Positions 53,827-54,458 of a DNA stretch of 64,000 nt are shown one piece after another. Source of the DNA: Lachnospiraceae bacterium (lineage in GTDB: Bacteria > Bacillota > Clostridia > Lachnospirales > Lachnospiraceae); NCBI GenBank assembly GCA_015057085.1, contig SVFB01000100.1, positions 1 through 64,000 on the forward strand. The letters run 5' to 3'. The notes beneath the pieces are model-generated. The model saw nothing but the letters and a program-made list of their open reading frames with translations, made no database searches and had not been told where the DNA came from. A program made the translations under genes and the position numbers. How positions within the stretch are numbered: the stretch's first letter is position 1; each line of letters begins with the position of its first letter.

Positions 53827-54134
53827 TGTCGTTCTCCTCTTCTAAATTTATTCAAGTTTAAAAATCTTTGAAGGGACAAAAAAAAGGTTTCATCCCTAGT
53901 ATAGGGACGAAACCATTACATTCCGCGTTACCACCCTGATTCCTATATGAAATACATATAGACACTCGGTTTTGCTTAACGTGCAATCTCCGTCGCAAAC
54001 TACTGCATATTTCATCTGCGAAGCTCCTGTGCGAAATTCAATTCCCATCCTGCTTAAGAAGACTTGCAGCCGGTGATCTTCTCTCTCTGAAAGCGGTATT
54101 AAAAATCTACTTAACACATTCAATGCCTTTAACT
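53827..54134 (-). promoter_or_regulatory. Phenylalanine T-box riboswitch leader of pheST
   Basis: On the minus strand this leader of about 300 nt has the T-box core AGGGTGGTAACGCGG (53923-53937), whose TGGT pairs with the ACCA end of uncharged tRNA (discriminator A, as in tRNA-Phe). The terminator follows (53886-53914). Upstream lies the Stem I region, including GAGAGAGAAG...CTTCTT and a specifier-loop-like segment GAATTTCGC (about 54030-54038), from which UUC or UUU can be read; both are Phe codons. Uncharged tRNA-Phe should stabilise the antiterminator and switch on pheS, pheT and probably queA. Confidence 0.9.
53878..53914 (-). terminator. Intrinsic terminator of the Phe T-box
   Basis: On the minus strand GGTTTCGTCCCTA and TAGGGATGAAACC form a stem (53886-53914, one G-U pair) followed by eight or more U (53878-53885). 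It overlaps the downstream arm of the T-box antiterminator, as expected for tRNA-controlled attenuation. Confidence 0.88.
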
Positions 54135-54191: not shown

Positions 54192-54423
54192 AAAAAATAG
54201 CCCGGACGTGCCGGTTCTCGCGATTTAGACTCCTAGCGCTAAGCCAGGTGGGTAACCGCAACTCCACATCTGCCTTCCCCTGGCCTGTCGTACGGTGGCT
54301 GACGGCTCCGAACAAGTTCGGCATGGCCAGCCCAGGGGGGCTTGACATTAATGAAGCAATTTAAGAATCCCATTAAAAGTAAATGTAGGTTCTAAATAGC
54401 AAGAGTTGTCGTGCACTCCAGGT
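54192..54423 (-). ncRNA. Structured non-coding RNA, family not assigned
   Basis: A transcript of about 232 nt is predicted from the promoter at 54430-54458 to a U6 run at 54192-54197. Its ends pair: CCTGGA-GTGC (54413-54422) with GCACGTCCGGG (54201-54211), 10 bp with one bulged G and one G-U, directly before CTATTTTTT. Inside are CCAGGGG/CCCCTGG (54332-54338 with 54277-54283), GGCTG/CAGCC (54297-54301 with 54328-54332) and the hairpin CCGAA-CAAG-TTCGG (54308-54321). The core is strikingly GC-rich in AT-rich surroundings. No open frame or Shine-Dalgarno site is apparent. It lacks the SRP (GGAA loop, AGCAGC), RNase P and tmRNA signatures. 6S RNA or the raiA-type motif are candidates. Confidence 0.78.
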
Positions 54424-54429
54424 AAATAT

Positions 54430-54458
54430 ATTATACTTTTTGATCATCAAAAATTCAA
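54430..54458 (-). promoter_or_regulatory. Near-consensus promoter of the structured RNA
   Basis: On the minus strand TTGAAT (54453-54458), exactly 17 bp, then TATAAT (54430-54435). The start should be near 54423, right at the 5' strand of the RNA's closing helix. The spacer holds a TTTTTGATGATCAAAAA inverted repeat. Confidence 0.82.

What the first reader, a model, noticed from the sequence alone, without database searches (positions are those of the whole stretch)
54192..54423. Unassigned structured RNA with its own promoter and self-pairing ends
Seen: a TTGAAT-17-TATAAT promoter; a transcript of about 232 nt whose first 10 bases pair with bases just before a U6 run; several internal helices; a GC-rich core in AT-rich DNA; no plausible open frame. 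Known: signature motifs of SRP RNA, RNase P, tmRNA and 5S rRNA are absent. Inference: an abundant stand-alone RNA such as 6S RNA, a raiA-type motif RNA, or an undescribed class. Its position between a membrane-protein gene and the Phe T-box leader does not indicate a cis-regulatory role.
Basis: partly seen in the sequence, partly recalled or inferred. Interest (0 to 1): 0.72.

Follow-up and report, generated by a model that had tools for sequence, protein, structure and literature searches.

The report
6S RNA with enlarged apical hairpin
This is an ordinary 6S RNA gene, the well-known bacterial RNA that ties up RNA polymerase when growth stops, with a small extra hairpin at its tip that one sister species shares.

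Summary
On the minus strand, window 54427-54195 matches Rfam 6S/SsrS RNA (RF00013) over the whole model, 60.1 bits against a curated cut-off of 46.4, E 2.1e-9. The RNA folds into the canonical 6S shape. The consensus fold of 21 genus sequences has 12 of 48 pairs with changes on both sides; no shuffle or slid version reaches it. It is the only 6S match found in its genome. Homologues are found in 55 of 62 genus genomes, including 30 of 30 nearly complete ones. Upstream neighbours are kept in 7-8 of 29 genus loci. These two are the longest of the 55 genus 6S RNAs, and the A. ruminis copy falls below Rfam's cut-off. Ordinary gene; the extension is a small lineage-specific variation. Transcription and polymerase binding were not tested.

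The parts
54192..54423 (-). 6S (SsrS) RNA gene, about 232 nt; the Rfam RF00013 match spans 54427-54195
   Evidence: cmscan 60.1 bits, cut-off 46.4, E 2.1e-9, model 1-187 of 187; genus model R1 172.2 bits (the window sequence is one of the 21 that the model was built from)
54430..54458 (-). sigma-70/sigma-A type promoter-like site TTGAAT-17-TATAAT
   Evidence: 10 of 12 consensus matches; transcription start inferred at A54423
54410..54423 (-). closing stem, 5' arm
   Evidence: helix 1 of the genus consensus, 96.3% of cells paired
54201..54213 (-). closing stem, 3' arm, followed by the U run
   Evidence: helix 1 of the genus consensus; sequence
54372..54390 (-). 5' central bulge, the expected template for product RNA; a product RNA start near 54384-54385 on the + strand is inferred (RNA nt 39-40)
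   Evidence: unpaired; GAACCTACA invariant in 21 of 21 rows; start inferred by comparison with PMC8414754 section 12 and passages of PMC8876501
54232..54248 (-). 3' central-bulge hairpin
   Evidence: helix 8 of the genus consensus, 99.2% of cells paired, no pair with a change on both sides
54283..54338 (-). GC-rich apical extension (about 50 nt more than in most of the 29 genus relatives aligned), folding into an extra hairpin
   Evidence: alignment; fold -30 kcal/mol but z only -1.47 for 54275-54350; one copy in the genome; shared with A. ruminis L034

Best explanation
The sequence is the organism's 6S RNA. By established knowledge of the family, it mimics an open promoter: the rod-shaped RNA binds the housekeeping sigma-A RNA polymerase when growth slows and holds it off DNA promoters. 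When nutrients return, the polymerase uses the central bulge as template for a short product RNA, which refolds the 6S RNA and frees the polymerase. Shown here: sequence and structure membership, orthology, a single match in the genome, canonical predicted fold. Inferred: transcription, polymerase binding, product RNA synthesis, and that the apical extension lengthens the distal arm without changing this cycle.
For: Full-length RF00013 match above the curated cut-off. In the family, 185 of 200 genomes match at E<=0.001 and 171 of 200 over the cut-off. 55 of 62 genus genomes match the window sequence and 55 of 62 the genus model, 30 of 30 among the nearly complete ones in both. Covariation: 96.7% of cells paired, 12 of 48 pairs with changes on both sides, 0 of 500 shuffles reach any of the five measures, slid versions pair 33.0-49.0%. 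The fold matches the layout described for Bacillota 6S RNAs (passages of PMC8414754; passages of PMC8876501). Upstream neighbours are kept in part of the genus: response regulator in 8 of 29 loci, the protein with a weak CheX match in 8 of 29, the small membrane protein in 7 of 29; 7 of the 29 loci are shorter than 3 kb.
Against: At 232 nt it is longer than the 160-200 nt usually quoted (PMC8414754), and its sister in A. ruminis scores 42.9 bits, below the cut-off. Helix 5 of the apical stem is the least well kept (87.3% of cells paired). The consensus was derived from these same sequences, and the shuffle control does not remove shared ancestry. The promoter scan is barely above chance. In 21 of 29 genus loci the upstream neighbours were not found. 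No expression data were available.
Confidence: 0.97

Rival explanations
1. A 6S RNA whose apical extension has gained an added function in this species pair, such as docking a protein or altering polymerase affinity.
For: The extension is kept in two species, and between them one hairpin pair is missing on both sides in L034, which leaves the hairpin intact. One C to U change in the outer stem turns G-C into G-U.
Against: Only two sequences; the stretch with the hairpin is not clearly more stable than shuffled sequence (z -1.47 in the window with 16 of 200 shuffles as good, -0.76 in L034 with 40 of 200). Six other genus loci have apical extensions that do not look like this one (L051, L052, L055-L057, L061), so the tip seems free to vary. 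In B. subtilis, 6S-1 RNA cut down to the central bubble and two short arms still runs the cycle in vitro, with about 10-fold lower affinity (abstract of PMC8876501).
Confidence: 0.1
2. A stand-alone RNA of an undescribed class, or a raiA motif RNA.
Against: Full-length RF00013 match and no other Rfam family over its cut-off at this place.
Confidence: 0.01
3. Part of the pheST leader that regulates phenylalanyl-tRNA synthetase together with the T-box.
For: The T-box begins about 60 bases downstream on the same strand, and a T-box follows 6S in A. ruminis too.
Against: The RNA ends in a closing stem followed by a U run; a second promoter-like site lies between it and the T-box; no T-box reaches the cut-off in the other 19 of 20 loci scanned.
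Confidence: 0.02

Closest known systems
6S / SsrS RNA, Rfam RF00013
   Same: Full-length match over the curated cut-off; closing stem, central bulge, opposite hairpin, apical stem.
   Different: 53 bases at the tip where the model has 3 positions; 232 bases by the genus model against 183-218 in 53 other genus members and 231 in A. ruminis.
Bacillus subtilis 6S-1 RNA (passages of PMC8876501)
   Same: A hairpin in the 3' central bubble of the free RNA; product RNA starts at nt 40 there, and nt 40 lies in the 5' central bulge here.
   Different: Apical arm extended. Against the product RNA hallmarks in PMC8414754 section 12, a start at nt 40 keeps the upstream A and GG at 5/6 but not AA at 9/10. 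No direct alignment with the B. subtilis RNA was made.
6S RNA of Agathobacter ruminis JK623 (L034 = G208, L064)
   Same: 92% identical over query bases 31-280 of 321, same extension, same neighbours on both sides.
   Different: Scores 42.9 bits, below the Rfam cut-off.

Membership tests
6S / SsrS RNA (RF00013) | Covariance-model score over the curated cut-off, full length | tested here: met
   60.1 against 46.4 bits, positions 1-187 of 187
6S / SsrS RNA (RF00013) | Rod shape: closing stem, central bulge, apical stem | tested here: met
   predicted folds and consensus
6S / SsrS RNA (RF00013) | Compensatory changes that support the helices in homologues | tested here: met
   12 of 48 pairs with changes on both sides in 21 sequences; helices 3, 4, 6 and 8 have none
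6S / SsrS RNA (RF00013) | Typical, not defining: length of about 160-200 nt (PMC8414754) | tested here: inconclusive
   232 nt as a whole; about 180 without the apical extension
6S / SsrS RNA (RF00013) | Binding to housekeeping RNA polymerase | not testable with these tools
   needs biochemistry
6S / SsrS RNA (RF00013) | Template for product RNA | not testable with these tools
   the candidate template stretch is invariant in 21 of 21 rows; synthesis itself needs RNA data
raiA motif RNA | Match to its Rfam model | tested here: not met
   no such match in the window at the gathering threshold
SRP RNA, RNase P RNA, tmRNA, 5S rRNA | Match to their Rfam models | tested here: not met
   only T-box and 6S reported in the window at the gathering threshold

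The most novel reading that the evidence does not exclude
The apical extension is a lineage-specific functional module on 6S RNA: an added GC-rich hairpin, kept under structural selection in two sister species, that tunes polymerase binding or recruits another factor.
Probability: 0.08. Interest if true: 0.4.

Novelty: new member of a known kind. Interest (0 to 1): 0.1.

Why it matters
It closes the question: the RNA is a standard housekeeping regulator. The small practical point is that a lineage-specific apical extension can leave a true 6S gene below Rfam's cut-off, as in A. ruminis (42.9 against 46.4 bits). That the extension is the cause there is inferred: the window copy carries it too and still passes.

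Tried and rejected
Rejected: undescribed RNA class and raiA; a pheST leader role; a repeat or mobile element as source of the GC-rich tip. For the last, the tip has one match in its own genome at E<=10; a 26-base stretch of it occurs in one record of genome contigs, A. ruminis (the tool warns that records of the window's own genome may be left out); the whole RNA has no match in plasmids at E<=0.01. In phages one unannotated 5205-base record matches bases 1-56 only, at 82.1%, up to the record's very end; this does not reach the tip and was not followed up.

The plus-strand fold came first and was the wrong strand; the minus strand was then folded.

Of the 15 family genomes without an RF00013 match, the genus model found 6S in 2, G078 and G117. 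Both are 181 bases, so without a long extension, and differed in E-value limit (0.01 against 0.001) and in the first-look candidates scored (150 against at most 12), so the model alone need not explain the gain. Four that are at least 90% complete still show none (G083, G143, G162, G165); only 150 of their 398-1163 first-look candidates were scored, so absence is not shown.

Rows left out: of the genus genomes with a match, one search gave loci for 29 besides the window's own. and alignment A1 used 20 of these 29 (left out: L036, L040, L042, L044, L049, L054, L057, L060, L061). All 29 were. The listing was cut short, so family lengths come from listed rows only.

Papers: a search for '6S RNA' with 'Lachnospiraceae' gave one paper, PMC5171806. 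Passages seen there (a supplementary-file legend) say that Clostridium phytofermentans, of that family, has a 6S RNA predicted by Rfam. Searches were seen as listings. PMC8414754 was seen as passages and section 12, PMC8876501 as passages. No claim is made that the extension is absent from print. Helix names such as closing stem and apical stem follow these papers; the link of helix 2 to P2 is my inference.

Full report
Observation. The promoter-like site is at 54458-54430. The RNA of 54423-54192 folds with z -2.72, against -0.68 for the plus strand. Its ends pair, and the last nine bases including U6 are free. The tip of the RNA is unusually GC-rich for this window: 67.9% against 37.6%, reached by 9 of 63944 56-mers, its own overlaps included.

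Identity. cmscan of the whole window against 4227 Rfam families gives two matches over the cut-offs: a T-box at 54132-53900 (125.1 bits) and 6S RNA at 54427-54195 (60.1 bits, cut-off 46.4, E 2.1e-9), both on the minus strand. The 6S match spans the whole model, with 53 bases at the tip where the model has 3 positions. The genome of the window (96.71% complete) has one 6S match, even at E<=10.

Relatives. In the family, 185 of 200 genomes have a match to RF00013 at E<=0.001 and 171 of 200 have one over the cut-off. In the genus, 55 of 62 genomes match the window's RNA, and 55 of 62 match a model built from 21 genus sequences. The same seven lack a match in both; their completeness is 58 to 84. 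All 30 genomes that are at least 90% complete and at most 5% contaminated have it. One genus member is named: G208 is Agathobacter ruminis JK623, by its contig of the same length. The window's species itself is not named by any search.

Structure. The consensus of 21 sequences has 48 pairs in 8 helices: closing stem, a second helix below the central bulge, apical helices, and a hairpin on the 3' side of the central bulge. Of the cells, 96.7% are standard pairs, 12 pairs have changes on both sides, and 0 of 500 shuffles reach any of the five measures. Sliding the partners by one to three columns lowers pairing to 33.0-49.0%. The consensus comes from these sequences and they are related, so these numbers lean towards the structure. 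The Rfam match supports the same layout. That layout is the one that PMC8414754 (passages) describes for lactic acid bacteria and PMC8876501 (passages) for B. subtilis 6S-1.

Product RNA, inferred. Counting from A54423, nt 40 falls on window 54384, in the 5' central bulge. A product RNA starting there, read on the plus strand, has an A just upstream and GG at positions 5/6. These are two of three hallmarks named in PMC8414754 section 12. The third, AA at 9/10, is not met; AA begins at position 11. The template stretch GAACCTACA is invariant in 21 of 21 rows. B. subtilis 6S-1 starts its product RNA at nt 40.

The tip. Of the 29 genus relatives aligned, most have a short apical loop. The window and A. 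ruminis (G208, L034) share an extension of about 50 nt. Among the 55 genus 6S RNAs found by the model these two are the longest (232 and 231 bases), the other 53 spanning 183-218. Among the family matches listed the next longest span is 210 (G089); that list is cut short, and long extensions may lower the score. Between the window and A. ruminis one hairpin pair is missing on both sides, so the hairpin is kept. But the stability of that stretch is not beyond shuffled sequence (z -1.47 and -0.76). Apical extensions unlike this one occur in L051, L052, L055-L057 and L061, so the tip appears free to vary. The A. ruminis copy scores 42.9 bits, below the cut-off.

Neighbours. Upstream lie a small membrane protein without a Pfam match, a response regulator and a protein with a sub-threshold CheX match. 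These are found beside 6S in 7, 8 and 8 of 29 genus loci, A. ruminis included, which supports orthology there; in the rest other genes lie upstream or the locus is cut short. pheS is near 6S in 1 of 29, A. ruminis, and the T-box in 1 of 20 scanned. Adjacency to the pheST T-box is therefore a local feature of the species pair and gives no hint of function.

Mechanism. From established knowledge of the family (passages of PMC8876501 and PMC8414754): the RNA occupies housekeeping RNA polymerase as an open-promoter mimic and is released by product RNA synthesis when nutrients return. None of these steps was tested here. Verdict: a standard 6S RNA gene with a small, lineage-specific tip extension.

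Noticed in passing
window 54430-54423 against L036, L037, L056, L061: In these relatives the TATAAT-like box lies clearly further upstream of the 6S start than in the window, so their primary transcript may carry a 5' leader that is trimmed; here the box sits directly before the RNA. Seen by eye.
   Followed up: no
flanks of 6S in L040, L046, L048, L051, L054: Short motifs loosely of the form ACAAAAGATAA recur around the 6S gene in several genus members, not seen around the window's copy. Seen by eye, not counted.
   Followed up: no
G083, G143, G162, G165: Four family genomes at least 90% complete in which neither RF00013 nor the genus model finds a 6S RNA; loss, divergence, assembly gap or limits of the search not resolved.
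   Followed up: partly
G024, G132: Two family genomes with two 6S matches each over the cut-off, possible duplicates like B. subtilis 6S-1 and 6S-2.
   Followed up: no
window 53900-54132 (-): T-box leader (125.1 bits) with its own promoter-like site ahead of pheS.
   Followed up: partly
phage record MT838488.1, 5150-5205: An unannotated 5205-base record from human faecal samples ends in a stretch 82.1% identical to the first 56 bases of the 6S RNA; it may be a bacterial or integration-site fragment.
   Followed up: no
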